Below the pieces are notes generated by a model that was not told where the DNA came from, made no database searches, and saw only the letters and a program-made list of their open reading frames with translations. Below, piece after piece: positions 15,398 through 62,309 of a stretch of 64,000 nt of DNA (its first letter is position 1; every line of letters begins with the position of its first letter). This stretch comes from Luteibacter jiangsuensis (GTDB taxonomy: Bacteria; Pseudomonadota; Gammaproteobacteria; Xanthomonadales; Rhodanobacteraceae). The DNA lies in contig NZ_JAUSSK010000004.1 in NCBI RefSeq assembly GCF_030812295.1, forward strand, positions 248,001-312,000, given 5' to 3'. The position numbers were made by a program, and so were the translations under genes.

Positions 15398-15420
15398 CTT
15401 GAGTGCTCCAGGGGGAAGGA

Positions 15421-16503: not shown

Positions 16504-16614
16504 GGTATGCCGCCCATCGTCTGAAACAACCGGCACGATGGTCGTCCTGCCGCGACAAGCGAACAACGCGATGCCGCGCCTATCTGTTATGCACGATCGG
16601 CATAGCTAGCTGCA

Positions 16615-16640: not shown

Positions 16641-16644
16641 TCAT

Positions 16645-17553: not shown

Positions 17554-17617
17554 GGGAAGATCACGCGCCAGCCGGCCAGGATGTCCCGATTATGTGCCCA
17601 ATGCCGGCGCCCCCGCC

Positions 17618-18979: not shown

Positions 18980-19085
18980 GTGCTTTGGAACCCCCGATCC
19001 CGTCGAATGGCGACGGTGCGGGGCGATCCTCGCCGCAGGGCGGGGCATGGAACAACGCGATGACGAAACTATCAGGTATGCGAAA

Positions 19086-19123
19086 GATGCATGACTTGCG
19101 TTACGTCATGACTATTGTGCATC
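19086..19123. promoter_or_regulatory. Candidate operator between porin and fdhF-like gene
   Basis: The inner dyad CATGAC-N9-GTCATG (19090-19110) is flanked by GATGCA (19086-19091) and TGCATC (19118-19123), the half-site of the palindrome upstream of galD. It lies about 107 bases from the porin start and 73 from the molybdoenzyme start. The shared half-site suggests common LysR control of porin and operon, but six-base matches are weak evidence. Confidence 0.4.
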
Positions 19124-19195
19124 GCAACAAGAGACGGGATCGCCCCGTACCTTGGTTTTATTGCTCCTTTTGGTGCGGCGTAGAATGATGCGTCC

Positions 19196-34219: not shown

Positions 34220-34258
34220 GAAGGCTTCCCTGGTAACGCGTGAATGGTTTTCGGAGGA

Positions 34259-35806: not shown

Positions 35807-35825
35807 CGGTACTCCTTTCGCTGGA

Positions 35826-35852
35826 CGATGCCCCGCACCGGGCGGGGCATCG
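35826..35852 (-). terminator. Intercistronic hairpin between xylF and xylG
   Basis: CGATGCCCCGC pairs with GCGGGGCATCG across a 5-base loop, an 11-bp stem 12 bases after the xylF stop. There is no T-run, so it more likely protects the 3' end of xylF mRNA or attenuates, giving more binding protein than ATPase and permease. Confidence 0.65.
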
Positions 35853-35864
35853 CCGATCTTACGC

Positions 35865-36878: not shown

Positions 36879-36907
36879 GCTCATCTCCATGCTTATGGGA
36901 TCGCCCT

Positions 36908-38425: not shown

Positions 38426-38426
38426 A

Positions 38427-39743
38427 TCACCCATAGATATAGCGGTTGACGATGTTTTCGAGCAACTCCTGTCCACCCGAGACGTGCTTGGGATGGATGT
38501 CGCGGGCCATCGCCTCGTCCGCCAGCGAGGCCAGCGTGAAGCCGCCCTGCAGGATCTTCTTGCCGAAATCGGCATCCCAGCCGGCGTAGCGCTTCGCCTT
38601 GAAGTCGGCCAGCGCGTCGCGCTCGATCATCTTCGCCGCGCGTTCCAGGCTGAGGGCCAATGCGTCGATCGCGCCGATGTGGCCGTGGAAGAGATCTTCC
38701 GGCGCGTTGCTCTGGCGGCGCACCTTGGTGTCGAAGTTGAAGCCACCCGTGGTGAAACCGCCGGCCTTCAGGATCTCGTAGGTGACCAGGGTCAACTCTT
38801 CCACGCTGTTCGGGAACTGGTCCGTATCCCAGCCGTTCTGCGGGTCGCCGCGATTGGCGTCGATCGAACCGAACACGCCCAGCGCGATCGAGGTCGCGAC
38901 CTCGTGATGGAACGAGTGGCCGGCCAGGGTGGCGTGGTTGGCTTCGAGATTGGTCTTGACCTCGTTCTCCAGGCCGAACTCCTTCAGGAAGCCGTAGACC
39001 GTGGCGGTGTCGTAGTCGTACTGGTGCTTGGTCGGCTCTTGCGGCTTGGGCTCGATCAGGATCGTCCCCTTGAAACCGATCTTGTGCTTGTGTTCGATCA
39101 CCATCTGGAAGAAGCGGCCGAGCTGTTCGCGCTCACGCTTCAGGTCGGTGTTGAGCAGGGTGTCGTAGCCTTCGCGGCCGCCCCACAGCACGTAGTTGGC
39201 GCCGCCCAGGCGGTGCGTGGCTTCCATCGCGTGGCGCACCTGCGTGGCCGCATAGGCGAACACTTCCGGCTGCGGATTGGTCGCGGCGCCGGCAGCGTAG
39301 CGCGGGTTGCTGAACACGTTGGCGGTGCCCCACAGGAGCTTCACGCCGGTCTCGGCCTGCTTCTTCTCGAGCACGTCGACCATGGCCGCGAAGTTTTTCT
39401 TGTATTCGGCGAGGCTGTCGCCTTCCGGGGCCACGTCGGTATCGTGGAAGGTGTAGTAAGGCGTGCCCAGGCGGGAGAAGAAGTCGAACGCCGCGTCGGC
39501 CTTCTCACGGGCCTTGGCCATCGGCTCACCCGCCGCCTGCCAGGGGCGCTCGAAGGTGCCCGCGCCGAATACATCGGAACCCGGCCAGACGAAGGTATGC
39601 CAGTAGCAGGTGGCGAGACGGAGGTGCTCGGCCATGCTCTTGCCGAGCACCTGCTTGTTCGGGTCGTAGTGGTGGAACGCCAGCGGATTGTCGCTGCCGG
39701 TGCCTTCGTAGCTGATTTTGGGGACGCTGGAAAAGTACGACAT
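38427..39743 (-). CDS. xylA: Xylose isomerase
   Basis: XylA interconverts D-xylose and D-xylulose, using two divalent metal ions. The 438-residue product is a class II enzyme with [12 protein letters not shown] (catalytic His100, Asp103), [32 protein letters not shown] and [20 protein letters not shown] with the metal ligands. ATG 39743 has AAGGAA at the right distance. It heads the operon and is divergent from xylR. Confidence 0.98.
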
Positions 39744-39899
39744 AACAATTCCTTGACAAACGTGGGGACGAATCCCGACGATCCTGACGAGCGGTGCCCA
39801 TGGCGCGCAATTGCGATTTCCGACGGGGCCCGGCTCTTTTTCGATGCCGCGCTGCGTCATGGTCAGATAACGCAAACCCTGATAGTTTTCGACGGGCCC
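39744..39899. promoter_or_regulatory. Divergent xylA/xylR promoter region
   Basis: The 156 bases between xylA and xylR must hold both promoters and the XylR site. AT-rich stretches occur near 39824-39845 and 39868-39890. I do not see a clear direct repeat that I could name as the XylR box. Confidence 0.5.
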
Positions 39900-41078
39900 A
39901 TGTCTCCCCACAGAATCGCTCTGCTGTTCAATGCCAACAAGGTGTACGACCGCCAGGTCATCGCCGGCATCGGGCATTACCTCAACAGTACGCGCGTGGA
40001 ATGGGATCTCTTCATGGAGGAGGATTTCCGCAGCCGCATGCGCGACATCCACCAGTTTCGCGGCGACGGCGTCATCGCCGACTTCGACGATCCGGAAGCA
40101 CCCGATGCGCTGCGCGACCTGCCTATCCCGGTTGTCGCGATAGGCGGCTCGTATCACGATCCCGCCGCTTACCCCCCCGGTGTGCCTTATATCGCCACGG
40201 ACAACGCCCGGCTCATCCGGCTCGCGTACGACCACCTGATCGAACAAGGCCTCGGCCGCTTCGCGTTCTACGGCATACCGCCCCACCCCGGCAGCCGCTG
40301 GGCGCAGGAACGCGAGCATGCCTTCCAAGCGATCGTGGACGAGGAATCGGTCGAGGGCGTGGTCTACCAGGGCTCGCCGACCAGCGCGGGCGGCTGGGGG
40401 ACGGCGGTGGAGGAACTGGTCACCTGGTTGGCCGAACTGCCCAAGCCGATCGGCATCATCGCCGTGACCGACGCTCGTGCCCGGCAGTTGCTGCAGGCCT
40501 GTGTGATCGGCGGGTTCGCGGTACCCGAGCAGATCGCCATCGTCGGCATCGACAACGACCCGATGGCGCAGTTGCTCACCCGCATCCCGCTCACCTCCGT
40601 GATCCAGGGCGCGGAGGAAATGGGCCGCACAGCCGCCCACCTGCTGCACCAGATGCTGCGCGGCATGGATTGTTCGGGCACGCGCGTGCTGGTGCCGCCG
40701 GTCGGCATCAACGTGCAGGTGTCGAGCAAGTACCAGCCGATGCGCAGCCCGCATGTGATGCGGGCGAGTCACTACATTCGTCAGTACGGTTGCCTGGGCA
40801 TCAAGACCGAACAGGTGGCCGACTACGTGGGGGTGTCGCGCACGGTGCTGGAAGAACACTTCAAGCGCGAATTGAAGCAGACCGTGCACCAGGTGATCCT
40901 GAAGCATAAGCTCGACACCGCTTGCGAGCTCATGACGAATTCCGACACGCCGCTCGCCGACATCGCGCTGCGCTGTGGTTTCACCTCGCTCCAGTACATG
41001 TATGCGGTGTTCCGTCGCGAATACGATTGCACGCCGCGCCAATACCTCGACCTCCATCGCAAGACGGCGGCGACCTGA
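39900..41078 (+). CDS. xylR: Xylose operon activator XylR (AraC type)
   Basis: The 392-residue product equals E. coli XylR in length. Residues 1-275 form a LacI-like sugar-binding domain ([46 protein letters not shown]), and residues 290-390 an AraC-type double helix-turn-helix ([19 protein letters not shown], then [22 protein letters not shown]). It would bind xylose and activate xylA onward. The start lacks a strong ribosome site. Confidence 0.94.
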
Positions 41079-41106
41079 TCGCCTTCCCCAGGGAAACGCT
41101 TCACCC

Positions 41107-42150
41107 ATGCCCGTATCCAACGCCACCGCCTGGGGCCAACTCCCCGACGGCCGCCCGCTCCACCGCTGGACCCTGCGCAACGCGCGAGACACCCAGGTCG
41201 AGATATCCAACCTCGGTGGCACCCTGCTCTCCTGGCAGACCCCGGACCGCCAGGGTCGCGTGGGCGAGGTCTTGCTCGGTCACGCCGACGCGGGGCAATA
41301 CATCGATTCCAATGCGTACATGGGCGCGATCGTCGGCCGTTGGGCGAATCGCATCCGCGGCGGGCGCTTCCGGCTCGATGGCATCGACTACAAGGTCGAC
41401 CGCAACGACGGCGGCAACCACCTGCATGGCGGCAACTACGGGTTTCACCTGCAGCGCTGGGACGTGGAAACGGATGGCGACGACCTTGTGCTGCGGCTGG
41501 TGTCGCCCGAGGGCGATGGCGGGTTTCCTGGCGAGGTGAGCGTCGAGTTGCGTGTGCGGCTCGACGACGACGGCACGCTGGACCTGCGCTATACCGCCAC
41601 GAGCGACGCGCCCACGCCGCTCAGCCTGACCGCGCATCCGTACTTCAACCTCAACGACCGGCGGCCGGATATCCGCGATCACGTGATCCGGATCGACGCG
41701 GACGAATTCCTGGCCATCGATGCGGGGGCGATACCGGTGGGGCGCCAGCAGGTGGCTGGCTCCGCCTTCGATTTCCGCGAAGCGGCGCCGATCGGTTCGC
41801 GCCTGCACTGGCCCGATCCGCAATTGCAGCTGGTGGGCGGCTTCGACCATTGCTATATCCCGCGCCAACCGGCGGCCCAGGCGCCACGCGTGGTCGCGGA
41901 AGTCGTGGAACCCTCGAGCGGACGCCGTCTCACCGTCGAGAGCGACCGCCCCGGCCTGCAGTTCTACAGCGGGCAGAAACTCACCGGGCAACCGTCGCGA
42001 CATGGCGACGCCTACGGACCCTTCGCCGGCTTCGCGCTGGAGACCCAGGCCTTTCCCGATCAGGTCAATGGCCCCGAGGCGGAAGGCGCGATCCTTCGCC
42101 CCGGCGTGGTATGGCGCCAGCACACGCGCTACCGGGTGGATACGCTGTAG
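41107..42150 (+). CDS. galM: Aldose 1-epimerase (mutarotase)
   Basis: The 347-residue product is a galactose-mutarotase-family protein with [37 protein letters not shown] (catalytic His), LTAHPYFNL (second catalytic His) and QFYSGQKL. It equilibrates alpha and beta forms of aldoses, probably xylose here, because it lies 28 bases after xylR on the same strand. Xylose rather than galactose as substrate is inference from context. Confidence 0.93.
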
Positions 42151-50970: not shown

Positions 50971-52554
50971 ATGACGGACGAATCGAAGATCGAGAAAGAT
51001 GAGCTGATCCACGGCGCGGGGGAGACGCCCGAGGATGCGCAGGCCGACCTCAAGATCTCACGCCGTAACTTCATCGCGGGCACGGCCCTCGCCGCGACCG
51101 GGTTGATGATCGTGCCCCGCCATGTCCTGGGCGGGCCCGGGCATACGCCACCCAGCGATCGGTTGAACATCGCCGGCATCGGCGTCGGCGGTATGGGCGC
51201 GCACAACATCCGCGCCCTGGCCGGCGAGAACATCGTCGCCCTGTGCGACGTGGATTGGCGCTATACGGAGGAGTCCTTTCGCAGGATGTTCGGCGACCTG
51301 GGGAACACGCAGGCACGCCTCGACAAGGCGCGAACCGCGGTGGAGCGCCGGGATCTGCAGGATGAGATCGAGCATACGAAGCTGCTTTCCCGCAAGTTCG
51401 GTTCGATCAAGCGCCATACCGATTACCGCAGGATGCTCGAGCAGCAAAAGGACATCGACGCGGTGGTCATCGCGACGCCGGACCACCTGCACGCGACGAT
51501 CGCCAGCGCGGCGATGGGCCTTGGCAAGCACGTCTACGTGCAGAAGCCCCTTACCTGGTCGATTCACGAAGCCCGGGAACTGGCCCGGAAGGCAAAGGAG
51601 AATCCCCGGATCGTCACGCAGATGGGAAACCAGGGGCATTCGACCGACGATGCCCGGTTGATCAACGAGTACATCGCGGCCGGGGCGATCGGCGATGTGC
51701 GCGAAGTCCACGTATGGACGAATCGCCCGCTTGCCTACTGGCCGCAAGGCATTCCACGCCCGCAAGCCAGACCTGACCCGGGGGACGCGAACTGGGACAT
51801 GCACGCGGTGACGGATCGGCTCGCCAATGCCATGGCCGGCAACTATCCGGTGCCGCAGGGGCTCGCGTGGGATCTCTTCCTCGGTCCCGGCCCCGTCGTC
51901 GAATACCACCCTCTCTATCACCCGTTCAACTGGCGCGGGTGGGTGGATTGGGGCGTGGGTGCCATCGGCGACATGGGCGCCCATCTGATCGATTCGCCGT
52001 TCTGGTCGCTGGACCTGGGTTTACCGACGTCCGTGGAGACCGTGTCGACGCCGTTCGACAAGGCGTCCTATCCCATGGCGACGATGACCTACTACGACTT
52101 TCCGGCGCGCGGCGGCATGCCGCCGGTGAGGCTCACCTGGTACGACGGCGCGTTGCTTCCGCCCGGGCTGGAGGCGCTCGGAGCCGGGCAGATGAGCAAG
52201 GACGGCGGCGTGCTCTATATCGGTGACAAGGGCAAGCTGATCCACGAGACATACGGTGCGAACCCGCGGCTGCTGCCGCAATCGTTGCATGATTCGGTGG
52301 GTACGCCTCCCCGGACATTCGCACGCATCGAGACCTCGCACGAGATGAACTGGGTGGATGCCTGCAAGGGGAAGGGTCAGGCATCGTCGCCATTCGCGTA
52401 CGCCGCGCGGCTGACGGAAGTCATGCTGCTAGGCGTCGTATCTCTTCGGGCGGGTGGCAGGATCGAATACGACGCGCAGAACATGCGCATCGCCAATCTG
52501 CCGGGAGCCGACGAATTCCTGCGTCGTGAGTACCGCGAGGGCTGGTTCCTCTAG
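50971..52554 (+). CDS. Tat-exported Gfo/Idh/MocA family oxidoreductase
   Basis: The 527-residue product starts with a long charged leader and a twin-arginine signal (SRRNFIAGTALAATG, about residues 35-50), then a dinucleotide-binding fold (LNIAGIGVGGMGAHNIRAL, ALCDVDW, TPDHLHA) with the family EKP replaced by QKP (YVQKPL), and a C-terminal sheet domain with GDMGAHLIDSPFW. Export in a folded state with its bound nucleotide resembles glucose-fructose oxidoreductase. The substrate is unknown; the neighbours suggest a keto-sugar or glycoside. It converges on the LacI-type regulator gene with a four-base overlap and is the island's first gene after ahcY. Confidence 0.87.
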   Translation: MTDESKIEKDELIHGAGETPEDAQADLKISRRNFIAGTALAATGLMIVPRHVLGGPGHTPPSDRLNIAGIGVGGMGAHNIRALAGENIVALCDVDWRYTEESFRRMFGDLGNTQARLDKARTAVERRDLQDEIEHTKLLSRKFGSIKRHTDYRRMLEQQKDIDAVVIATPDHLHATIASAAMGLGKHVYVQKPLTWSIHEARELARKAKENPRIVTQMGNQGHSTDDARLINEYIAAGAIGDVREVHVWTNRPLAYWPQGIPRPQARPDPGDANWDMHAVTDRLANAMAGNYPVPQGLAWDLFLGPGPVVEYHPLYHPFNWRGWVDWGVGAIGDMGAHLIDSPFWSLDLGLPTSVETVSTPFDKASYPMATMTYYDFPARGGMPPVRLTWYDGALLPPGLEALGAGQMSKDGGVLYIGDKGKLIHETYGANPRLLPQSLHDSVGTPPRTFARIETSHEMNWVDACKGKGQASSPFAYAARLTEVMLLGVVSLRAGGRIEYDAQNMRIANLPGADEFLRREYREGWFL

Positions 52555-53648
52555 GGCTGGTCGGCGCCAGCCGGCCGCGTGCGCCGACAAGGCCCGGTCG
52601 ATCCCCGCAGTACCAGTTCGGCGGACAACACCCGCTTGCGCGTTGGCACCTCCGGGTCGTTGAGTATCTCGATCAGCATCATCATGGCTTCCCGTCCCAG
52701 CGCGTTCTTCGGCTGGGAAACGGTGGTCAACGGTGGCGAGGTGTAACGGGCGAAGCGGATGTCGTCGAAGCCGACGACGGAGACGTCTTCCGGGATGCGC
52801 AAGCCACGGGAGATCAGGGCGCGCATCGCGCCGATGGCCATTTCGTCGTTGGAGCAGAAAACCGCGCTGAAGAACAGGCCCTGCGAAAGGAACAACTCGA
52901 CGGCGCGTTCGCCGGCTTCGATGGAGAAATCCCCGGCGGCGGTAAGGGCGGAGTCGACGGCGATGTTCGCTCGTTGTAACGCAAGGTGGTAACCCTGCTC
53001 GCGATCGACGCAGATCGGGCTCGACGAGGGGCCGGCGATGAAGGCGATCTCGCGGTGCCCCAGGGTCACGAGGTAGTCGACGGCTGCCGCGGCCGCCGCG
53101 ACGTTATCGACGTACACGCTCGATATGGCGCTGTCCTTGACGTATTCGCAGGCGTTGACGAGCGGCAGACGGCCCTCGATAGGGATCGCCGGCACGCGAT
53201 GGAACATGGTGATGATGCCGTCGGCCTGCCGGGCCGCGACCATGTCGGCATAGGCCTGTTCGCGCACGAGACTGCTCTGCGTCTCGCCTAGAAGCACGGA
53301 GTACCCATTCTCGTAAGCGACCTGCTCGATACCTCGGATCACTTCCGAGAAGAACGGGTTGGCGATGTCGGGAAGCAGGGCGACGATCAGCCGCGTCCGC
53401 GCGGTCCGCAGGTTGCGCGCAAGCGCGTTGGGCGTATAGCCGAGGCGTTTGACGACCTCATGGATACGCTGACGCGTTTCCTCGCTCACGATTTCAGGGC
53501 GTTGCAACGCGCGCGAAACGGTTGCCACTGAAACCTTTGCGATGGCGGCGATTTCCTTCACCGTTCGCACGCGAACGGGCTGCGGCGCAACATCGGTGTG
53601 CTGGCCCTTGCCGCCTTTCCGCTTTCGCCTGGATTCCTCTGTACTCAC
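52551..53648 (-). CDS. LacI-family transcriptional regulator
   Basis: The 365-residue product has a LacI helix-turn-helix (TVKEIAAIAKVSVATVSRALQRP) preceded by a basic 30-residue extension, then a sugar-binding domain with NPFFSEVIRGIEQVAYENGYSVLL, GPSSSPICVDREQGY and VVGFDDIRFARYTSPPLTTV. I chose GTG 53648, with AGGGATGG upstream; an ATG at 53726 would begin inside a dyad. The dyads at 53726-53741 and 53871-53886 are probable operators, so it likely represses the sugar genes to its right. Confidence 0.9.
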   Translation of the reverse strand: MSTEESRRKRKGGKGQHTDVAPQPVRVRTVKEIAAIAKVSVATVSRALQRPEIVSEETRQRIHEVVKRLGYTPNALARNLRTARTRLIVALLPDIANPFFSEVIRGIEQVAYENGYSVLLGETQSSLVREQAYADMVAARQADGIITMFHRVPAIPIEGRLPLVNACEYVKDSAISSVYVDNVAAAAAAVDYLVTLGHREIAFIAGPSSSPICVDREQGYHLALQRANIAVDSALTAAGDFSIEAGERAVELFLSQGLFFSAVFCSNDEMAIGAMRALISRGLRIPEDVSVVGFDDIRFARYTSPPLTTVSQPKNALGREAMMMLIEILNDPEVPTRKRVLSAELVLRGSTGPCRRTRPAGADQP

Positions 53649-53725
53649 GCGTTTTCCATCCCTTTGCCTGCCCGAGGCGTTCCGCACGATAGCAGCCGGC
53701 GGCGCGTTCAATATGCTGCATTGCA

Positions 53726-53741
53726 ATGTAATGGATTACAT
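53726..53741. promoter_or_regulatory. LacI-type operator 1
   Basis: ATGTAATGGATTACAT is perfect in its 7-base arms. It lies 78 bases upstream of the LacI-gene GTG start, suited to autoregulation. Confidence 0.65.
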
Positions 53742-53870
53742 AAAACCGTTGCAGGCTTCTTCACCCGTCTGATACATATCTTGGCATGTTCAGGGCTCTC
53801 GACAGTGGATAGCCCGGGGAAATCACGGACTCCAAGCAGGCGAAGGCCTCCTGGTCCATATGCCACATGG

Positions 53871-53886
53871 ATGTAATCGAATACAT
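53871..53886. promoter_or_regulatory. LacI-type operator 2
   Basis: ATGTAATCGAATACAT resembles the first site and has the central CG typical of LacI-family operators. It lies 73 bases before the Gfo/Idh start and 145 bases from site 1, a distance that would allow looping. Confidence 0.65.
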
Positions 53887-53959
53887 TTTGGCGGCAAGAG
53901 GTCGCCGGGGAACCCATGGCAAGCCAGTCGATATCGAACAGCGGCAGGACCACCGACCG

Positions 53960-55150
53960 ATGAGGCTCGGCATGGGACTCGTCGGCCCCGGCTTCATCGC
54001 CGCGCATCATCTCGATGCCGTACGGCGCCTGGGCGATGTCGAGGTGGTCGGCATCGCCGGCTCCAGCTTCGAATCCGCGAAAAAGCGGGCGCGCGAGTTG
54101 AATGCCGGCCAGGCTTATGCGAGTTACCGCGAACTGCTGGCCGATCCCGCTGTGCACGTGGTGCACAACACCACGCCCAATCACCTGCACCGCGAAGTCT
54201 CCCTGGCGTCGCTGCGCGCCGGCAAGCACGTGATCTCCGACAAGCCCCTCGCCGCCACGATGCAGGAAGCGCGAGAACTTTACGAGGCCGCACGCGACGC
54301 GAATCTCGCTCATGTCGTCACGTTCAACTACCGAGGCTACCCGCTCGTGCAGCAGGCACGCGCGATGATCGCCAAGGGCGAGATCGGCAAGAGCGTGTTC
54401 GTGCACGGTTGCTACCTGCAGGACTGGCTCACCGATGAGCGCGCTTACACGTGGCGCCTGGACCCCAAGCTGGGTGGTGCCAGTTCCGCGCTCGGGGATA
54501 TCGGCTCGCACTGGTGCGACCTGGCCGAGCACGTGACGGGCGCGCGCATCGTCGCCGTACTGGCCGACCTGCACACGGTGGTACCCGTGCGCGAAGCACC
54601 GGACGCCTCGGCGAAAGCCTTCGCGGGCGCGGCGGCGACCGCCGGGAAACCACGCAGGATCACCAGCGAAGACCTGGCCAGCGTGCTGCTTCGTTTCGGC
54701 AACGGTGCGCGCGGTTGCGTCACCGTCGGCCAGGTGCTCCCCGGCCACAAGAACGATCTCCGCCTGGAGGTCAACGGACGCGAAGGCTCGGTAGCGTGGC
54801 GCCAGGAACAACCCAACGAACTCTGGATCGGGCATCACGCGAAGGCGAATACGACGCTCACGCGCGATCCCGCGCTCCTGGACCCTTCCGCCCGGAGTTA
54901 CGCGCACCTGCCCGCCGGTCATCCCGAGGCCTGGGCGGACGCGTTCCGCAACGTGATCTCCGACGCCTACGCGTGGGTCCGCCAGGGTGCCGCGCCGGAA
55001 GCGAAACCCGTCGCGCTGCCCACGTTCGCCGACGGCTACCGCAATAGCCTCCTGGTGGACGCCATGCTCAAGAGCCATGCCGCCGGGGGCGTATGGCAGT
55101 CGATCGACGACCCTTTCGAACCCACACGTACAACGAGGAAACGCGGATGA
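53960..55150 (+). CDS. Gfo/Idh/MocA family oxidoreductase (cytoplasmic)
   Basis: The 396-residue product has an N-terminal NAD(P)-binding fold (GMGLVGPGFIAAHHLDAVRRLGDVEVVGIAGSS), TTPNHLHREVSLASLRAGKHVISDKPLA with the catalytic Lys of the EKP-type motif (here DKP), and a C-terminal domain with LGDIGSHWCDLAEHVTGA. No signal peptide is present with ATG 53960. It is first in the plus-strand operon, its stop overlapping the permease start as ATGA. The substrate is probably a keto-sugar; this is inference. Confidence 0.88.
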   Translation: MRLGMGLVGPGFIAAHHLDAVRRLGDVEVVGIAGSSFESAKKRARELNAGQAYASYRELLADPAVHVVHNTTPNHLHREVSLASLRAGKHVISDKPLAATMQEARELYEAARDANLAHVVTFNYRGYPLVQQARAMIAKGEIGKSVFVHGCYLQDWLTDERAYTWRLDPKLGGASSALGDIGSHWCDLAEHVTGARIVAVLADLHTVVPVREAPDASAKAFAGAAATAGKPRRITSEDLASVLLRFGNGARGCVTVGQVLPGHKNDLRLEVNGREGSVAWRQEQPNELWIGHHAKANTTLTRDPALLDPSARSYAHLPAGHPEAWADAFRNVISDAYAWVRQGAAPEAKPVALPTFADGYRNSLLVDAMLKSHAAGGVWQSIDDPFEPTRTTRKRG

Positions 55151-56352
55151 AATGGCGCCTTAGAGTGATGATGCTGTTCGAATTCGGGATCTGGGGCGCG
55201 TGGTACGTCACCGTCGGCACCTGGCTCGGCAAGACACTGCATTTCACCGGCACGGAAATCGGTGCCGTCGCGGGCACCACCGCCATCGGCGCGATCATCT
55301 CGCCGCTGTTCGTGGGGCTGCTCGCCGACCGTCTCTTCGACACGCGCCGGGTGCTCACCCTGTTGCACCTCCTTGGCGCCGTCCTGCTCGCGGTCGCCGC
55401 GCAACAGACCACGTTCGCGCTGGTATACGCTCCCCTGCTGGCTTACAGCCTCTGTTACATGCCGACCCTGGCCCTCACCGCCTCGCTCGCCATGCGGCAC
55501 ATCAAGGACCCGCAGGAAGAATTCGGCGCCATCCGGGTGTTCGGCAGCATCGGCTGGATCGTGGTGGGCCTGGTCGTCGGTGCGTGGGGCGTGGAAGCCA
55601 CGGCATCTCCCCTTCTCCTGGCGGCCGGCCTTTCGGTCGTGATGGCGGGCTACTGTTTCACCCTGCCTCCGACGCCGCCGCTGGCGCGCCATACGCGCTT
55701 CGAGATGCGCCATGCGCTGCCGCTCGAATCACTGCACCTGCTCCGTGGGCGCTCGATGGCGGTGTTCGCCCTCGCCTCGTTCCTCATCTGCATCCCGCTG
55801 CAGTTCTACTACGCGTTCACCAACCTGTTCCTCAACGAGGTGGGCGTGGTCAACGCCGCCGGCAAGATGACCGGCGGGCAGATGTCGGAGCTGTTCTTCA
55901 TGCTCCTCATTCCGTGGTTCTTCCGGCGCCTGGGCGTGAAGTGGATGCTCGCCGTCGGCATGCTCGCCTGGGTGCTGCGTTATGCCATGTTCGCCTTTGG
56001 CGGCACCGGAGAGCTGATGTGGATGCTCTGGCTGGGCATCATCCTGCACGGCGTCTGCTTCGACTTCTTCTTCGTGGTGGGCCAGATCTACATCGACCGT
56101 GAAGCCCCGCCCGCGCTGCGCGCGGCAACCCAGGGGCTGATCACCTTCCTGACCTACGGCCTGGGCATGTTCGTCGGTTCATGGCTGTCCGGCGTGGCGG
56201 TCCAAACCTATACGCGAAGCGACGCGACGCACGACTGGCACGCCATCTGGCTCATCGCCGGTGCCTTCGCCGCATTCGTTTTCGCCCTCTTCGTCGTGCT
56301 CTTCAAAGATCGCAAGGCCACCGCGGACGCCGCCGTCGCCGCCACCCCCTGA
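55147..56352 (+). CDS. Nucleoside:H+ symporter-family (NHS, MFS) permease
   Basis: The 401-residue product has twelve hydrophobic segments and begins MKWRLRVMMLFEFGIWGAWYVTVGTWL, typical of the NHS/NupG branch of the major facilitator superfamily. FGAIRVFGSIGWIVVGLVVG, GIILHGVCFDFFFVVGQIYID and TQGLITFLTYGLGMFVGSWLSG are further family motifs. In sugar gene clusters such permeases probably import the pathway's sugar rather than nucleosides. It is coupled to the preceding oxidoreductase by a four-base overlap. Confidence 0.88.
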   Translation: MKWRLRVMMLFEFGIWGAWYVTVGTWLGKTLHFTGTEIGAVAGTTAIGAIISPLFVGLLADRLFDTRRVLTLLHLLGAVLLAVAAQQTTFALVYAPLLAYSLCYMPTLALTASLAMRHIKDPQEEFGAIRVFGSIGWIVVGLVVGAWGVEATASPLLLAAGLSVVMAGYCFTLPPTPPLARHTRFEMRHALPLESLHLLRGRSMAVFALASFLICIPLQFYYAFTNLFLNEVGVVNAAGKMTGGQMSELFFMLLIPWFFRRLGVKWMLAVGMLAWVLRYAMFAFGGTGELMWMLWLGIILHGVCFDFFFVVGQIYIDREAPPALRAATQGLITFLTYGLGMFVGSWLSGVAVQTYTRSDATHDWHAIWLIAGAFAAFVFALFVVLFKDRKATADAAVAATP

Positions 56353-56368
56353 TTCGGGAGAACCGTTC

Positions 56369-57244
56369 ATGATGAATCGCAGGCAGTTCCTCGCGCATTC
56401 CGCGCTGTGCGGCACGGCGCTGGGGCTTGGCCTCGGCGCACCGGGAAAGCTACTTGCCGCCGCGTCGAAGGGCAAAGGACTGGGCATCCAGCTCTACATG
56501 GTGCTCGACGCCTACAAGAACGACCCCGTCGGTACGCTCCAGACCCTGAAGTCGATCGGCTATACGGAGATCGAAGCCATCGTCACCGGCACGGCCGGGA
56601 CACTGCGCGATCAACTGAAGGAAGCCGGCCTGGGCTGTCCGAGCATGCACTTCGACAGCCTCGGTTTCGAGGCGGGTATCGAAGCCGCGCATACGCTCGG
56701 TGCCCGGTACATCGTCAGCAGCATGTTGCCCTCGATCATGCAGAAGGAAGCGAACAAGCCGGGCGAACCGGCTTATTCGCTCGACGACGCCAAGCGCACG
56801 GCGGAGTATGCGAACCGCCTGGGTGAGAAGGCCAACAAGGCCGGCCTCCAGTACGCATATCACAACCACCACGCCGAATTCACCGACGTGGGCGGTGGGC
56901 AGGTGTTCTACGACGTACTGCTGAAGGAAACGGACAAGAAACTCGTGCAGTTCGAACTCGACTGTGGCTGGGTCGCCGCTGGCGGCAAGAATCCGGCCGA
57001 CTACTTCAAAGCCAACCCGGGTCGCATCCCGCTGATGCATGCGAAGGATTTCCTGCGCGGCGATCACAAGGATTACCCGGGCGCCGAACTCGGCCGTGGC
57101 AAGCTCGACTACAAACCGATCATGGCGGCAGCGGATACATCCGGACTGAAGCATTGCTTCGTCGAACAGGAGGGCCCGTACGCCCGCATGAGCCCGCTCG
57201 ACGCCGCGCGCGTCGATTACGACTACCTGCGCCCGTTGCGCTGA
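56369..57244 (+). CDS. Exported sugar isomerase/epimerase-like TIM barrel
   Basis: The 291-residue product has a twin-arginine-like signal (NRRQFLAHSALCGTALGLGLGAPGKLLAA), then a xylose-isomerase-like barrel (AP endonuclease 2 fold) with GIQLYMVLDAYKNDPVGTLQTLKSIGYTEIEA, YHNHHAEF, ELDCGWV, LMHAKDF and VEQEGP, which supply metal ligands (Glu, Asp, His, Glu). GGGAGAA lies before the start (first of two ATGs). It probably isomerises or epimerises a keto-sugar in the periplasm; the exact reaction is unknown. Confidence 0.85.
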   Translation: MMNRRQFLAHSALCGTALGLGLGAPGKLLAAASKGKGLGIQLYMVLDAYKNDPVGTLQTLKSIGYTEIEAIVTGTAGTLRDQLKEAGLGCPSMHFDSLGFEAGIEAAHTLGARYIVSSMLPSIMQKEANKPGEPAYSLDDAKRTAEYANRLGEKANKAGLQYAYHNHHAEFTDVGGGQVFYDVLLKETDKKLVQFELDCGWVAAGGKNPADYFKANPGRIPLMHAKDFLRGDHKDYPGAELGRGKLDYKPIMAAADTSGLKHCFVEQEGPYARMSPLDAARVDYDYLRPLR

Positions 57245-57254
57245 AGGGAAAGGC

Positions 57255-58946
57255 ATGGGAACGAACACATTCGACGCCATCGTCGTCGGCACCGGCGTAA
57301 GCGGCGGCTGGGCCGCCAAGGAACTCACCGAGAAGGGCCTCAAGACGCTCGTGCTCGACCGCGGCCCGATGGTCAAGCACGGCGATTACCCCACGGCCAT
57401 GAAGGCACCGTGGGAGCTGCCCTACGGCGACGAGCCGACGCAGGAAGACCTCGCCCGGTGGCCCAAGCATACGCGCCCATCGTTCTACGGCATCACCCAG
57501 TCCACCAAGCACTGGTTCGCCGACGACATCGACAACCCGTACGAGGAAACCAAGCCGTTCGACTGGTTCCGCGGCTACCACGTCGGTGGACGTTCGCTGA
57601 TGTGGGGCCGGCAGAGCTATCGCTTCAGCCCGATGGACTTCGAGGCGAACGGCAAGGAAGGCGTGGGCGTGGATTGGCCGATCCGCTATGAAGATCTCGC
57701 TCCGTGGTACGACCACGTCGAGCATTTCATCGGGGTCAGCGGCAATGCCGATCACCTGGCCCAGCTGCCGGATGGCGATTTCCTGCCCCCCATGGAGCTC
57801 AACTGCGTCGAAAAGGACTTCCAGGCCAAGCTGGACGACAAGCTCGACCGCAAGCTCATCATCGGCCGCACCGCCAATCTCTCCGCACCGCTGAAACACA
57901 ACCAGAGCCCGCAACGCGCGACCTGCCAGTATCGCAACCTGTGCATGCGTGGATGTCCGTTCGGCGGCTACTTCAGCAGCAACTCGTCTACCCTGCCTTC
58001 CGCCGAACGCACGGGCAACATGACGATGGTGACCAACGCCATCGTCTACGAGTTGATCTACGACAACGACAAGGGCAAGGCCACCGGCGTGCGCGTGCTG
58101 GATGCGGAGACCGGCCACCAGACCGAATACTTCGCCCGGGTGATCTTCATGTGCGCGTCCACCTTCGGCACCTCGCACATCCTGTTGAACTCGAGATCGA
58201 GCCGCTTCCCCAACGGCTTCGGCAACGACAGCGGCGAACTCGGCCACAACATCATGGACCACCTGTTCGGCACCGGCGCACGCGCCATGGTCGACGGCCA
58301 TGAGGACCGCTATTACTCCGGCCGACGCCCCAACGGTTTCTACATTCCCCGTTATCGCAACATCGGCACGGACAAGCAGAAGTACCTGCGCGGTTTCGGC
58401 TTCCAGGGTGGTGCGGGCCGCCAGGACTGGACTCGCCTCGTCGACCAGCAGGCACTGGGTGAGGAGCTCAAGCGCGCCGCCCAATCCCCCGGCCCCTGGT
58501 ACGTCTCGATGATGGGCTTCGGCGAAATGCTGCCCTCCCACAAGAACTTCGTGACGCTCGACCGCGACCGCAAGGACAAGTACGGCCTGCCCGTCCTCAA
58601 TTTCGATGCCGCGCACCAGGAAAATGAAATCATGCTCGGCAAGGCGATCATCGACGACGCGATGGAGATGCTCACCGCCGCGGGCTATCGCGACGTGAAT
58701 TCCTTCAAGATGAAGGCCAACGTCGGCGCCGGCATCCATGAAATGGGCACCGCACGCATGGGCCGGGATCCGAAGACCTCGGTGCTCAATGGCTGGAACC
58801 AGATGCACGCCTGCAAGAACGTCTTCGTGACCGACGGCTCGGCCATGACCTCGTCCGCCTGCCAGAACCCGTCCCTCACTTACATGGCGCTGACCGCACG
58901 CGCGGCCAACCACGCCGTGGAAGAACTCAAGCGCGGCAATCTCTGA
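57255..58946 (+). CDS. GMC oxidoreductase, probable glucoside 3-dehydrogenase large subunit
   Basis: The 563-residue FAD protein has the nucleotide motif DAIVVGTGVSGGWAAKEL, WFRGYHVGGRSLMWGRQSYRFSPMDFEAN, and the C-terminal GMC domain with GAGIHEMGTARMG and NVFVTDGSAMTSSACQNPSLTYMALTARAA. A cysteine cluster CQYRNLCMRGC (Cys224, Cys230, Cys234) may hold an iron-sulfur centre, as in multisubunit sugar dehydrogenases. It has no signal of its own; the next gene's Tat-bearing small subunit could carry it out. AAGGGAAA precedes the ATG. No cytochrome subunit is in the island. Confidence 0.88.
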   Translation: MGTNTFDAIVVGTGVSGGWAAKELTEKGLKTLVLDRGPMVKHGDYPTAMKAPWELPYGDEPTQEDLARWPKHTRPSFYGITQSTKHWFADDIDNPYEETKPFDWFRGYHVGGRSLMWGRQSYRFSPMDFEANGKEGVGVDWPIRYEDLAPWYDHVEHFIGVSGNADHLAQLPDGDFLPPMELNCVEKDFQAKLDDKLDRKLIIGRTANLSAPLKHNQSPQRATCQYRNLCMRGCPFGGYFSSNSSTLPSAERTGNMTMVTNAIVYELIYDNDKGKATGVRVLDAETGHQTEYFARVIFMCASTFGTSHILLNSRSSRFPNGFGNDSGELGHNIMDHLFGTGARAMVDGHEDRYYSGRRPNGFYIPRYRNIGTDKQKYLRGFGFQGGAGRQDWTRLVDQQALGEELKRAAQSPGPWYVSMMGFGEMLPSHKNFVTLDRDRKDKYGLPVLNFDAAHQENEIMLGKAIIDDAMEMLTAAGYRDVNSFKMKANVGAGIHEMGTARMGRDPKTSVLNGWNQMHACKNVFVTDGSAMTSSACQNPSLTYMALTARAANHAVEELKRGNL

Positions 58947-58956
58947 GGATCTCGTC

Positions 58957-59547
58957 ATGAATCGTCGCGAATGGTTGAGAAGTATGTCCGCGCTGGCCGT
59001 CGGCGCCATCGCGGGCCCGTCCTTGCTGGCGGTGTTCGACGCGCACGCCACATCGCGGAAGCCGGATGCGAAGCCGCAATTCCTCGATCCGGCGCGGTAC
59101 AGCCTGGTCGGTGCCGTGTCGGACATCGTGATTCCGCGTACCGATACTCCCGGAGCGGTCGATGTGGGCGTGCCGTTGTTCATCGACCAGATGTTCGTGG
59201 CCGTCTACACCAAGGCCGACCGGACGCGTTACCTCACCGCCATGGCCGCCTTCGAGAAAGCGGCCGGCAAGCCCTTCCTCCAGCTCGACGACGCCCAGCG
59301 CAAGGCATTGGTGACCAGGCTGCATACCGAAGCGTTGGCCGTGCCCAGGGGCGGTAAGCTGGCGCCGGCGGCCGATTTCGTGCTGATGAGCAAGAAGCTC
59401 GCGATGCTGGGCTTCTTCCTGTCGCAGCCGGGTTGCACCCAGGTGCTCCAGTACGCCCCCGTCCCCGGCGCGTGGAAGGGCGATATCCCGTTGGCCGAAG
59501 CGGGCAACGGCAGGGCCTGGGCCGTCGAGACCGAACTGAAGATCTGA
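58957..59547 (+). CDS. Gluconate 2-dehydrogenase subunit 3-like small subunit (Tat-exported)
   Basis: The 196-residue product has a Tat signal (MNRREWLRSMSALAVGAIAGPSLLAVFDAHA) and the small-subunit domain with LVGAVSDIVIPRTDTPGAVDVGVPLFIDQMF and FFLSQPGCTQVLQYAPVPGAWKGDIPL. In the family this subunit is the Tat carrier for the FAD subunit, which here lies 10 bases upstream. Together they should form a periplasmic sugar or glycoside dehydrogenase. Confidence 0.88.
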   Translation: MNRREWLRSMSALAVGAIAGPSLLAVFDAHATSRKPDAKPQFLDPARYSLVGAVSDIVIPRTDTPGAVDVGVPLFIDQMFVAVYTKADRTRYLTAMAAFEKAAGKPFLQLDDAQRKALVTRLHTEALAVPRGGKLAPAADFVLMSKKLAMLGFFLSQPGCTQVLQYAPVPGAWKGDIPLAEAGNGRAWAVETELKI

Positions 59548-59548
59548 C

Positions 59549-60600
59549 ATGAAGACACTCAAGGGTCCAGGCATCTTCCTCGCCCAGTACGCATCGGACG
59601 AGGCGCCGTTCAACACGCTGCCCGACATCGCCCGCTGGGCGTCGTCGCTCTCTTTCATCGGGGTCCAGATTCCATCCAACGACCGCCGCCTGTTCGACCT
59701 GGAGCAGGCGGCGGCGAGCAAGACGTACTGCGACGACATCACAGGCATGCTTGCCGAACACGGCCTGGCGGTGACCGAACTGTCCACGCACCTGCAAGGG
59801 CAACTGGTGGCGTCGCATCCCGCGTACGACCGTCTGTTCGACGGTTTCGCGCCCCCCGCACTGCGTGGTCATCCGCGGCAGCGCCAGGAGTGGGCGGTGC
59901 GGCAACTCAAGCTTGCGGCCACGGCAAGCAGGAACCTCGGCCTGACGGCGCATGCGACCTTCTCCGGCGCGCTGGCCTGGCACCTGTTCTATCCATGGCC
60001 GCAGCGCCCGGCAGGGCTCGTCGACGAAGCCTTCGCGGAACTCGGCAAGCGTTGGAAACCGATTCTCGATGCCTTCGACGAGGCCGGCGTCGACGTCTGC
60101 TATGAACTCCATCCCGGCGAGGACTTGCACGACGGCGCCACCTTCGAGCGATTCCTCGACGCGGTCGACCACCATCCGCGCGCCAACATCCTCTTCGATC
60201 CAAGCCACATGGTCCTGCAGCAGATGGACTATCTGCGGTTCATCGACCATTACCACGAGCGCATTCGCGCCTTCCACGTCAAGGACGCCGAGTTCCGGCC
60301 CAGCGGACGCTCCGGCGTCTATGGCGGCTACCAGAACTGGATCGACCGCCCCGGGCGTTTCCGTTCGCTTGGCGACGGGCAGATCGATTTCGGCGCGATC
60401 TTCAGCAAGCTCGCGCAATACGACTATCCGGGCTGGGCGGTGCTCGAATGGGAGTGCTGCATCAAGGACGCGCAGCAGGGCGCGAAGGAAGGTGCCCCCT
60501 TCATCCGCGACCACATCATCAAGGTGACCGAGCGCGCCTTTGACGATTTCGCCTCGACAGGCAGCGACGTTGCGTTCAACCGCCAGATCCTGGGGCTCGA

Positions 60601-60604
<4 letters not shown>
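59549..60604 (+). CDS. Sugar isomerase/epimerase-like TIM barrel (cytoplasmic)
   Basis: The 351-residue product has no signal peptide. Barrel motifs supply likely metal ligands: CYELHPGED (Glu), LFDPSHMVLQQMD (Asp, His), AFHVKDAEF (His) and AVLEWECC (Glu). It resembles the YcjR-like 3-keto-sugar epimerases more than classical isomerases, by length and ligand pattern; that comparison is from memory. It starts one base after the small-subunit stop and overlaps the next gene as ATGA. Confidence 0.85.
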
Positions 60605-61512
<908 letters not shown>

Positions 61513-61532
61513 CATCTTTCCCGGGAATGCCC

Positions 61533-62309
61533 ATGAAACGCTTCGGCTCGACAACCCTCACCCTCTTCACCCTCGCGCTCATCGGCTCGCCGTGCGCATG
61601 GGCGCAGGACGATCCGAAGGCGACGGAGCAATGGGAGCCGGTGCCCAGGCTCGTCACCCCGGGGGCGAAGAAAGACATGCCGCCTGCCGATGCGGTCGTG
61701 CTCTTCGATGGTCGTGACCTTGCCGGTTGGGAAACGTCGAAGGATCACTCTCCCGCCCACTGGAAAGTGCACGACGGCGTGGTCACCGTCGACAAGACCA
61801 CCGGCAACATCCAGACGCGGCGACGTTTCCGCAATTACCAGCTGCACCTGGAATGGCGGATACCGAAGGACATCACCGGTGAAGGCCAGGCGCGCGGTAA
61901 CAGCGGGCTCTTTCTCGCCTCCACCGGCCCCGGCGACGAGGGCTATGAAATCCAGATCATGGATTCGTGGGAAAACAAGACCTACGTCAACGGACAGGCC
62001 GCGAGCGTATACAAGCAGACGGCGCCCCTCGTAAACGCGGCGCGGCGCCCCGGCGAATGGCAGAGCTATGACGTCGTCTGGACGGCGCCGGTCTTCGCCG
62101 CCGATGGCTCGGTGAAATCGCCGGCGTACGTCACGCTGTTCCATAACGGCGTGCTCGTGCAAAACCACACCGAGCTTTCCGGCGAGACCTTCTACATCGG
62201 CAAACCCAGGTACAAGGCTTATACCGATGCGCCAATCAAGCTACAGGCGCACGGTGACCACTCCCAGCCCATCAGCTTCCGGAACATCTGGGTGAGGCCG
62301 CTGGACTGA
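61533..62309 (+). CDS. Secreted DUF1080 protein (3-keto-disaccharide hydrolase/lyase family)
   Basis: The 258-residue product has a Sec signal (MKRFGSTTLTLFTLALIGSPCAWA) and one DUF1080 (PF06439) domain, a concanavalin-like jelly roll, with VVLFDGRDLAGWE, FRNYQLHLEWRIP, GNSGLFLASTGPGDEGYEIQIMDSW and PISFRNIWVRPLD. Members of the family cleave 3-keto-glycosides, which fits the dehydrogenase upstream. I chose ATG 61533, with GGGA upstream; ATG 61509, overlapping the previous stop, would give an N-terminal extension before the signal. It is the last gene of the island. Confidence 0.87.
   Translation: MKRFGSTTLTLFTLALIGSPCAWAQDDPKATEQWEPVPRLVTPGAKKDMPPADAVVLFDGRDLAGWETSKDHSPAHWKVHDGVVTVDKTTGNIQTRRRFRNYQLHLEWRIPKDITGEGQARGNSGLFLASTGPGDEGYEIQIMDSWENKTYVNGQAASVYKQTAPLVNAARRPGEWQSYDVVWTAPVFAADGSVKSPAYVTLFHNGVLVQNHTELSGETFYIGKPRYKAYTDAPIKLQAHGDHSQPISFRNIWVRPLD

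What the first reader, a model, noticed from the sequence alone, without database searches (positions are those of the whole stretch)
50971..62309. Periplasmic 3-keto-glycoside pathway island with several exported enzymes
Seen: a GMC dehydrogenase with cysteine cluster and Tat-carried small subunit, two Gfo/Idh oxidoreductases (one Tat-exported), three isomerase-like TIM barrels (two with export signals), a secreted DUF1080 protein, an NHS-type permease and a LacI regulator with paired operators. Known: glucoside 3-dehydrogenases of this two-subunit type oxidise C3 of glycosides, and DUF1080 enzymes split 3-keto-glycosides. Inference: glycosides are oxidised, cleaved and partly rearranged in the periplasm, and the keto-sugar is imported by the permease and reduced inside. 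No glycoside hydrolase is present, so this would be a hydrolase-free route. Three TIM barrels and two oxidoreductases leave at least two steps unassigned.
Basis: partly seen in the sequence, partly recalled or inferred. Interest (0 to 1): 0.85.

Follow-up and report, generated by a model that had tools for sequence, protein, structure and literature searches.

The report
Hydrolase-free glycoside breakdown cassette
A bacterium related to Luteibacter carries a compact gene cassette that looks built to take glycosides apart by oxidation, elimination, hydration and reduction instead of ordinary hydrolysis; the chemistry is already known from other bacteria, but here the steps seem to be split across the inner membrane and one exported enzyme is still unexplained.

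Summary
TIM2 (59549-60604) matches the solved 2-hydroxy-3-keto-glucal hydratase over its full length (606 bits). TIM1 (56369-57244) resembles the lyases AL1, BT1 and AtOGE in fold and keeps the AtOGE active-site residues. The first Gfo/Idh resembles the periplasmic glycoside 3-dehydrogenase BT2158; the second sits where a 3-keto-glucose reductase would.

The likely pathway is oxidation, beta-elimination, hydration, reduction, as reported for Agrobacterium and Bacteroides: a new variant, not a new kind. Two features stand out. The lyase carries an export signal (Tat or Sec) in 34 of 34 relatives seen, while the hydratase shows none in 80 of 80, so an unsaturated keto-sugar is probably what the permease imports. 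TIM3, a Tat-exported barrel of the ketose-epimerase type, lies beside the GMC gene in 51 of 51 genomes (of 299 sampled) that have it; its reaction is unknown.

The cassette (nine core genes, two operators, a short leader cistron) recurs in Luteibacter, Dyella, Pinirhizobacter and Rhodanobacter; the flanks differ in the eight relatives compared. No activity has been shown for any of these proteins.

The parts
50971..52554 (+). oxr1: Tat-exported Gfo/Idh protein, BT2158-like (probable second, NAD-type glycoside 3-dehydrogenase); accessory gene
   Evidence: PDB 8tdf 305 bits; NCBIfam BT_2158_fam 464 bits, below its cut-off of 750; orthologue in 14 of 23 genus genomes
52551..53648 (-). LacI-family regulator (GTG start chosen; longer starts possible)
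   Evidence: PF00356 and PF13377
53727..53740 (.). operator O1, TGTAATGGATTACA
   Evidence: invariant 16-bp block in the alignment of 12 sequences
53872..53885 (.). operator O2, TGTAATCGAATACA
53916..53963 (+). short leader cistron (15 codons) whose TGA overlaps the oxr2 ATG; frame conserved in 16 of 16 sequences
53960..55150 (+). oxr2: Gfo/Idh without export signal, probable 3-keto-glucose reductase
   Evidence: PF01408/PF22725; levoglucosan-dehydrogenase model 190 bits, below cut-off 650; role inferred from gene context
55147..56352 (+). NHS/MFS permease, probable importer of the cleaved keto-sugar (cargo inferred)
   Evidence: PF03825 381 bits
56369..57244 (+). TIM1: Tat-exported 3-keto-beta-glycoside 1,2-lyase (beta-eliminase) candidate
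57255..58946 (+). GMC dehydrogenase large subunit, no signal of its own; cysteines 224/230/234, His495, Asn538
58957..59547 (+). Gluconate_2-dh3-type small subunit with Tat signal
   Evidence: PF13618 92 bits; the only match to that family in the genome
59549..60604 (+). TIM2: 2-hydroxy-3-keto-glucal hydratase, no export signal
   Evidence: PDB 8ro4 606.5 bits, query residues 1-350 against 1-349
60601..61512 (+). TIM3: Tat-exported TIM barrel of the ketose-epimerase / hydroxypyruvate-isomerase type; reaction unknown
   Evidence: next to GMC in 51 of 51 genomes that have it, of 299 sampled
61533..62309 (+). DUF1080 / PF06439 protein with Sec-type signal; second candidate 3-keto-glycoside cleaving enzyme
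   Evidence: PF06439 153 bits; PDB 4qhz 270 bits, 8tda 28 bits

Best explanation
This is a catabolic cassette that breaks glycosides by oxidation, elimination, hydration and reduction, with the steps split across the inner membrane. (1) In the periplasm the GMC dehydrogenase, carried out by its Tat-bearing small subunit, oxidises C3 of a glycoside; in strains that have it, the BT2158-like Gfo/Idh protein does the same by another cofactor. (2) Still in the periplasm, TIM1 removes the aglycone or second sugar by beta-elimination, leaving 2-hydroxy-3-keto-glucal; the DUF1080 protein is a second cleaving enzyme, perhaps for alpha-linkages or for direct hydration. (3) TIM3 acts on keto-sugars in the periplasm, probably as an epimerase or carbonyl-shifting isomerase. 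(4) The NHS permease imports the cleaved keto-sugar. (5) In the cytoplasm TIM2 adds water to give 3-keto-glucose and oxr2 reduces it to glucose. LacI controls the unit through two conserved operators. Rests on sequence: gene content, families, export signals, full-length match of TIM2 to a solved hydratase, conserved lyase residues in TIM1, operators. Inferred: substrates, permease cargo, direction of oxr2, the binding of LacI to the operators, the roles of TIM3 and DUF1080.
For: TIM2 matches 8ro4, named 2-hydroxy-3-keto-glucal hydratase, over its full length at 606.5 bits. The model of TIM1 (mean pLDDT 88.6) has as its best matches of named function the 3-keto-beta-glucopyranoside 1,2-lyases AL1 (8tcd) and BT1 (8tct), ranks 3-6, with AtOGE (8bvk) at rank 9. 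The AtOGE metal and catalytic residues His132, Asp163, His189, Glu233 and His134 (PMC10628242, section 8) align with TIM1 His165, Asp198, His224, Glu266 and His167. The GMC protein keeps three cysteines aligned with those of the fructose dehydrogenase large subunit. Caulobacter and Phenylobacterium loci carry a similar module, with a cytochrome c near GMC in 8 of the 10 such loci looked at. In C. [quoted passage not shown] In B. thetaiotaomicron isothiocyanate release in vitro needs BT2158 with either BT2156 or BT2157 (PMC12385236, passages). Export signal on TIM1-like proteins 34 of 34 (31 by the heuristic, three by eye); TIM2 starts at its barrel in 80 of 80. TIM3 beside GMC in 51 of 51 genomes.
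Against: No enzyme of this cassette has been assayed. TIM1 is only 22-27% identical to the solved lyases, and its two best structure matches (3obe) have no known function. oxr1 and oxr2 both score below the curated cut-offs of the closest NCBIfam models. The DUF1080 protein is far from the other solved members and close only to 4qhz, named putative glycosyl hydrolase. The export calls are a simple heuristic that also labels 36 of 80 TIM2, 30 of 69 oxr2-type and 25 of 39 GMC proteins as exported, so the contrast rests on N-terminal extensions, not on a trained predictor; start codons were chosen near the start of the window protein, and 11 of 80 TIM2 genes have another possible start 15-75 codons upstream, none of them giving a twin-arginine leader by my rule. 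No cytochrome was found near GMC in the 16 Rhodanobacteraceae loci, so the electron acceptor is unknown. DUF1080 could complete cleavage and hydration outside, in which case the permease would carry 3-keto-glucose and TIM2 would matter less. Deletions of BT2157 or BT2158 gave no growth defect on raffinose-family sugars in B. thetaiotaomicron (PMC11501099, passages).
Confidence: 0.72

Rival explanations
1. One reading: the DUF1080 protein splits the 3-keto-glycoside by net hydrolysis in the periplasm, 3-keto-glucose is imported and reduced by oxr2, and the TIM barrels are side isomerases.
For: PF06439 is named 3-keto-disaccharide hydrolase; the DUF1080 gene CCNA_01705 is needed for lactose in C. 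crescentus; a DUF1080 gene (72-86% identical) is present in 16 of 16 Rhodanobacteraceae loci.
Against: TIM2 is a full-length match to a solved glycal hydratase and TIM1 has the lyase site; a cytoplasmic hydratase would have little to do if hydration were finished outside.
Confidence: 0.2
2. The cassette serves one special substrate such as an anhydrosugar, a C-glycoside or an inositol derivative, not a range of glycosides.
For: oxr2 is closest to levoglucosan dehydrogenase among NCBIfam models (190 bits); the levoglucosan pathway uses the same four steps (PMC7676230, abstract); the TIM barrels also hit myo-inosose dehydratase weakly.
Against: oxr2 is far below the levoglucosan model cut-off of 650; in Caulobacter, where a similar module occurs, the reported phenotypes are lactose, salicin and raffinose.
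Confidence: 0.12
3. The exported part works mainly as a respiratory oxidation of sugars, releasing keto-sugars, and the import part is a salvage route.
For: The dehydrogenase is periplasmic and its relatives are membrane-bound respiratory enzymes (recalled); in xanthomonad loci the exported and the import genes are separate runs.
Against: In 15 of 16 Rhodanobacteraceae loci all nine core genes lie together under one operator pair, and in the xanthomonad loci L050 and L073 both runs have the same operator-like motif upstream.
Confidence: 0.06

Closest known systems
Agrobacterium tumefaciens GlycDH-AtOGE-AtHYD-Gfo operon (Bitter et al. 2023, PMC10628242, sections 7 and 8 read)
   Same: GlycDH, TIM-barrel beta-eliminase, TIM-barrel glycal hydratase and Gfo reductase; TIM2 matches AtHYD (8ro4) at 606 bits
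   Different: The solved AtOGE chain (259 residues) lacks the roughly 30-residue N-terminal extension of TIM1, so cleavage is presumably cytoplasmic there; here the lyase is Tat-exported, and an NHS permease, a DUF1080 protein, TIM3 and oxr1 are added
Bacteroides thetaiotaomicron BT2156-BT2160 (PMC11300592, PMC12385236 and PMC11501099, passages read; Nasseri et al. 2024 not held, recalled)
   Same: BT2158-like exported Gfo/Idh, a TIM lyase (that BT2156 is the solved lyase BT1 is recalled), a DUF1080 protein
   Different: No GMC/Gluconate_2-dh3 pair, NHS permease or AtHYD-type hydratase is recalled for that operon; oxr1 is below the family cut-off and the DUF1080 protein is distant from 8tda
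Caulobacter lacABC lactose locus (Price et al. 2022, PMC9007349, section 10 read)
   Same: GMC dehydrogenase, DUF1080, transporter, two TIM proteins and a reductase; loci of other Caulobacter species show NHS-TIM(Tat)-Gfo-TIM2 order
   Different: A cytochrome c lies near GMC in 8 of 10 Caulobacter/Phenylobacterium loci and no TIM3 homologue was found in their fetched flanks; the window cassette has no cytochrome. The strain of the paper itself was not among my loci
Bacillus smithii levoglucosan pathway LgdA/B1/B2/C (PMC7676230, abstract read)
   Same: Oxidation, elimination, hydration, reduction
   Different: Single anhydrosugar substrate; no GMC dehydrogenase or DUF1080 protein named in the abstract
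E. coli YcjQRS (3-keto-D-glucoside 4-epimerase YcjR, PDB 6wn6; its pathway recalled)
   Same: TIM3 shares the fold (36.6 bits; Foldseek rank 14)
   Different: TIM3 is Tat-exported and is nearer in sequence to 3ngf and to psicose 3-epimerases

Membership tests
2-hydroxy-3-keto-glucal hydratase (AtHYD type), TIM2 | Full-length sequence match to the characterised enzyme | tested here: met
   8ro4, E 1.5e-181, residues 1-350
2-hydroxy-3-keto-glucal hydratase (AtHYD type), TIM2 | Hydrates 2-hydroxy-3-keto-glucal | not testable with these tools
   needs an assay
3-keto-beta-glycoside 1,2-lyase (AtOGE / AL1 / BT1), TIM1 | TIM barrel closest to the lyases | tested here: met
   Foldseek ranks 3-6 are AL1 and BT1 chains, rank 9 AtOGE; ranks 1-2 are 3obe, function unknown
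3-keto-beta-glycoside 1,2-lyase (AtOGE / AL1 / BT1), TIM1 | Metal ligands and catalytic His of AtOGE | tested here: met
   His165, His167, Asp198, His224, Glu266 align; His165, His167 and His224 invariant and Asp198 and Glu266 in 90% or more of 23 of the 34 TIM1-like sequences or window
BT2158 glycoside 3-dehydrogenase (NCBIfam NF058561), oxr1 | Score above the curated cut-off of 750 bits | tested here: not met
   464 bits; BT2158-like, not filed as a member
Levoglucosan dehydrogenase (NF052479), oxr2 | Score above the curated cut-off of 650 bits | tested here: not met
   190 bits
PF06439 3-keto-disaccharide hydrolase | Score above the gathering cut-off of 26.8 | tested here: met
   153 bits
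PF06439 3-keto-disaccharide hydrolase | Close to a member with shown 3-keto-glycoside activity | tested here: inconclusive
   8tda 27.7 bits, 8rr2 27.6 bits; best 4qhz 269.5 bits, named only putative glycosyl hydrolase
Two-subunit GMC glycoside 3-dehydrogenase (LacA/LacC, GlycDH) | GMC large subunit without signal, cysteine cluster, Gluconate_2-dh3 partner with Tat signal | tested here: met
Two-subunit GMC glycoside 3-dehydrogenase (LacA/LacC, GlycDH) | Dedicated cytochrome c (LacB) nearby | tested here: not met
   none within 6 kb of GMC in 16 Rhodanobacteraceae loci (one antisense CxxCH frame in L014 over oxr2 set aside) or in the window cluster; a 42% identical cytochrome lies about 60 kb upstream
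Two-subunit GMC glycoside 3-dehydrogenase (LacA/LacC, GlycDH) | Oxidation at C3 of glycosides | not testable with these tools
   needs an assay
3-keto-glycoside 4-epimerase (YcjR), TIM3 | Closest relative by sequence or fold | tested here: not met
   3ngf 60 bits and psicose 3-epimerase 59 bits precede YcjR 36.6 bits; Foldseek rank 14

The most novel reading that the evidence does not exclude
TIM3 is a periplasmic 3-keto-hexoside epimerase (C4) or carbonyl-shift isomerase that feeds galacto-configured or wrongly isomerised keto-glycosides into a single gluco-type lyase, hydratase and reductase, and the NHS permease is a carrier for the unsaturated 2-hydroxy-3-keto-glucal. I know of no exported epimerase described for the 3-keto route (searches listed none); it would offer, in the lineages that have TIM3, an answer to the open question of what happens to the 3-keto-galactose half of lactose.
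Probability: 0.25. Interest if true: 0.65.

Novelty: new variant of a known kind. Interest (0 to 1): 0.45.

Why it matters
It joins parts of two known systems (the Agrobacterium GlycDH/hydratase route and the Bacteroides BT2156-2158 route) in one regulated cassette of Xanthomonadales. By homology it suggests specific functions for the 'two sugar epimerases' reported as important for lactose growth in Caulobacter: an exported lyase and a cytoplasmic hydratase. It also makes one open point directly testable: the fate of the 3-keto-galactose, which Price et al. call unknown, with TIM3 as a candidate enzyme in the lineages that have it (no TIM3 was seen in the Caulobacter loci).

Tried and rejected
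Recent transfer by base composition: GC of the 2-kb bins over the cluster (0.630-0.665) is within the range of the window (0.608-0.708). A wider LacI regulon: the third genomic site at one mismatch (C1:470611) lies inside a histidine kinase gene, so the regulon appears local. A second DUF1080 cluster: the other PF06439 gene in the genome (L087:7449-8216) has a CHAD-domain frame and a frame with a weak carbohydrate-binding hit next to it and a TonB receptor about 4.5 kb away, but no 3-keto pathway gene that I could recognise. Helical phasing of the operators: spacing runs from 131 to 148 bases in relatives, so no fixed phase. Class-wide survey of TIM3 and GMC: too sparse to use, 1 and 2 of 229 genomes; the order-wide survey was used instead. 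A conserved outer-membrane or hydrolase partner: not found as a shared feature, but flanks were looked at in only 8 of 16 relatives and only 11 flanking frames were scanned against Pfam. One of these relatives, L009, does have a PNGaseA-like protein right after the cassette and a TonB receptor further on. A general conclusion about flanks is therefore limited; the window gene list also missed ahcY and TIM1, though looked for ahcY and metF and found neither in the 16 loci.

Papers: PMC10628242 sections 7 and 8 plus passages; PMC9007349 section 10 plus passages; PMC7676230 outline and abstract; PMC11300592, PMC12385236, PMC11501099, PMC11003636 and PMC13273386 passages; PMC11543891, PMC11239390 and PMC10066097 search listings only. 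Nasseri et al. 2024, Kastner et al. 2024 and Arellano et al. 2010 were not read; the first two are known to me from recall and from a reference list, the third from PMC9007349. I found no paper on this cassette in Luteibacter or Dyella in the ten searches made, of which only named those genera; its 12 listed papers (of 2,948) were on other subjects.


Full report
WHAT IS THERE. The window belongs to a Luteibacter-like genome: the closest named loci are Luteibacter jiangsuensis and Luteibacter sp. SG786, 92% and 91% identical in TIM2. Between an S-adenosylhomocysteinase gene (ends 50864) and a methylenetetrahydrofolate reductase gene (starts 62449; both by Pfam) lie ten genes: oxr1 (+), lacI (-), then one run of eight + strand genes, oxr2, NHS permease, TIM1, GMC, small subunit, TIM2, TIM3 and DUF1080, with gaps of 20 bases or less or small overlaps. 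oxr1 and lacI overlap tail to tail by four bases.

ASSIGNING THE ENZYMES. TIM2: phmmer against the PDB gives 8ro4, '2-hydroxy-3-keto-glucal hydratase', 606.5 bits over the whole length; the next hit has 144 bits. TIM1: best PDB sequence hits include 8tcd, 8tcs, 8tct and AtOGE 8bvk at 58-72 bits; in the structure search of its model (pLDDT 88.6) the first two rows are 3obe (function unknown) and the next four are the 3-keto-beta-glucopyranoside 1,2-lyases AL1 and BT1, with AtOGE at rank 9. The AtOGE residues His132, Asp163, His189, Glu233 (metal) and His134 (catalytic; its alanine variant is inactive, PMC10628242) fall on TIM1 His165, Asp198, His224, Glu266 and His167. TIM3: no chain named lyase or hydratase is among the 50 structure hits listed; they are mainly psicose/tagatose/allulose and other ketose 3-epimerases, with 3ngf, 1k77, 5hmq and YcjR. 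Its best model has mean pLDDT 80.2, the other four 63-69, and residues 1-49 are below 50, so this placing is weaker than for TIM1. Glu183, Asp219, His243 and Glu282 are invariant in 18 sequences and align with psicose 3-epimerases; that such positions are catalytic or metal-binding in those enzymes is recalled. GMC: Cys224, Cys230, Cys234 and His495, Asn538 align with the fructose dehydrogenase large subunit; that these cysteines hold an iron-sulphur cluster there is recalled. oxr1: 8tdf and 8tdh at 305 and 290 bits; NCBIfam BT_2158_fam 464 bits, under its cut-off of 750. oxr2: general Gfo/Idh relatives, best named NCBIfam model levoglucosan dehydrogenase at 190 of 650 bits. DUF1080: 4qhz 269.5 bits, all others 31.1 bits or less. 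Small subunit: no PDB hit.

COMPARATIVE CONTEXT. Of the 16 Rhodanobacteraceae loci (L003-L018), 15 carry all nine core genes and the sixteenth (L016) is cut by its contig end; oxr1 is in 2 of 16 within the held flanks. In the genus, a TIM3 orthologue (78% identity or more) is in 19 of 23 genomes (a twentieth has only a 33% match) and an oxr1 orthologue (75% or more) in 14 of 23, the window's genome counted. In the eight of these 16 loci compared, no frame outside the cassette matches a window frame of the list used above 40% identity, and neither ahcY nor metF was found in any of the 16, so the cassette appears to sit in different places. In Caulobacter and Phenylobacterium loci the order is NHS-TIM(Tat)-Gfo-TIM2 followed by GMC and small subunit, with a DUF1080 gene in several (61-67% identical in L026, L046, L051, L054 and L055) and a second, weak DUF1080 hit. 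A cytochrome c frame lies near GMC in 8 of 10 of these loci and in 3 of 3 xanthomonad loci (L050, L073, L080), but in none of the 16 Rhodanobacteraceae, apart from one antisense frame over oxr2 that I set aside (frames of 80-499 residues within 6 kb, third-position GC above 0.7). In xanthomonads L050 and L073, TIM2-NHS-Gfo-TIM and a second run TIM3-GMC-small-DUF1080 each have TGCAATCGATTGCA upstream (two mismatches from the window motif; no chance estimate was made for these loci). In 299 genomes of the order, TIM3 is found in 51 (E 1e-30 or better) and GMC in 62 (E 1e-60 or better); 51 of 51 TIM3 genomes have GMC on the same contig, 30-46 bases away in 29 and 1.7-3.4 kb away in 22. The genomes are related, so these are not 51 independent events, but there are two different gene orders.

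COMPARTMENTS. Of 34 TIM1-like proteins in the 80 loci, a heuristic called 25 Tat and 6 Sec; the three it missed (L004, L011, L055) show a twin-arginine leader by eye. So an export leader is present in all 34, of two different kinds. All 80 TIM2 proteins start directly at the barrel (76 with Met, 4 with a V or L start codon), with start codons picked near the window protein's start. As a check, 69 of 80 TIM2 genes have no other start codon 15-75 codons upstream, and none of the other 11 gives a twin-arginine leader followed by a hydrophobic stretch; Sec leaders were not tested there. The heuristic is unspecific: it also marks 36 of 80 TIM2, 30 of 69 oxr2-type and 25 of 39 GMC proteins as exported, so only N-terminal extensions are relied on. 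TIM3-like proteins are Tat in 19 of 20 and small subunits in 34 of 35. From this I infer that the elimination product, not the intact glycoside, crosses the membrane. In A. tumefaciens the solved AtOGE chain is 259 residues long and lacks the roughly 30-residue N-terminal extension of TIM1.

REGULATION. Both operators are identical in 15 of 15 relatives that hold the region and form invariant 16-base blocks in an alignment of the window with 11 of them. O1 is followed by TTGCA and TACAT boxes that look like a promoter (by eye). A short leader cistron (15 codons in the window) after a purine-rich ribosome-site-like run lies in another frame than oxr2, and its stop overlaps the oxr2 start in 16 of 16 sequences, the window included; its length varies from 12 to 47 codons while the frame relation is kept. 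That suggests translational coupling.

WHAT WAS KNOWN. The four-step chemistry is established for levoglucosan (PMC7676230, abstract) and for A. tumefaciens (PMC10628242, sections 7 and 8; the hydratase evidence is called preliminary there, and 8ro4 was released later under the hydratase name). BT2158 is described as a periplasmic glycoside 3-dehydrogenase (PMC11300592, passages). The Caulobacter lactose cluster has genetic data (PMC9007349, section 10). What is added here: the assignment of TIM1 and TIM2, and so by inference of the two 'epimerases' of the Caulobacter cluster (from Caulobacter loci other than the strain studied); the apparent split across the membrane; both dehydrogenase types in one cassette; the constant company of TIM3 with GMC; the conserved operators and leader.

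VERDICT. A real, conserved cassette; a new variant of a known kind of pathway. TIM3 is the part most worth testing.

Noticed in passing
window 53916-53963 and homologous sites in L003-L015, L017, L018: Leader cistron of 12-47 codons, never in frame with oxr2, whose stop codon overlaps the oxr2 start in 16 of 16 sequences.
   Followed up: partly
L009 (Dyella marensis) 12853-19238: Right after the cassette: a PNGaseA-like protein (PF12222, 32.5 bits), a phosphoinositide phospholipase C-like protein and a TonB-dependent receptor.
   Followed up: partly
L087:7449-8216 (own genome C1, about 242.4-243.2 kb): Second DUF1080 protein (PF06439, 140 bits) without recognised 3-keto pathway neighbours; a TonB receptor lies about 4.5 kb away.
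   Followed up: partly
L097:8551-8949 (own genome C4:238550-238948): Small cytochrome c, 42% identical to the cytochrome near GMC in Caulobacter sp. Root655; possible electron acceptor, but about 60 kb from the cassette and, by eye, not among sugar genes.
   Followed up: partly
window 4893-9427: Selenocysteine locus: SelA, SelB and an AIR-synthase-type protein (SelD-like) around tRNA-SeC at 8278-8373.
   Followed up: partly
window 33074-41222 (minus strand): Sugar-type ABC importer (permease, ATPase, binding protein) followed by a long frame holding a xylose-isomerase-like TIM barrel hit.
   Followed up: partly
L081 (Luteibacter sp. UNC138MFCol5.1) 9971-13422: Another TIM2-NHS-Gfo unit, 74% identical in TIM2, with the operator-like site TGAAATCGATTTCA and no GMC gene found within the fetched flank.
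   Followed up: no
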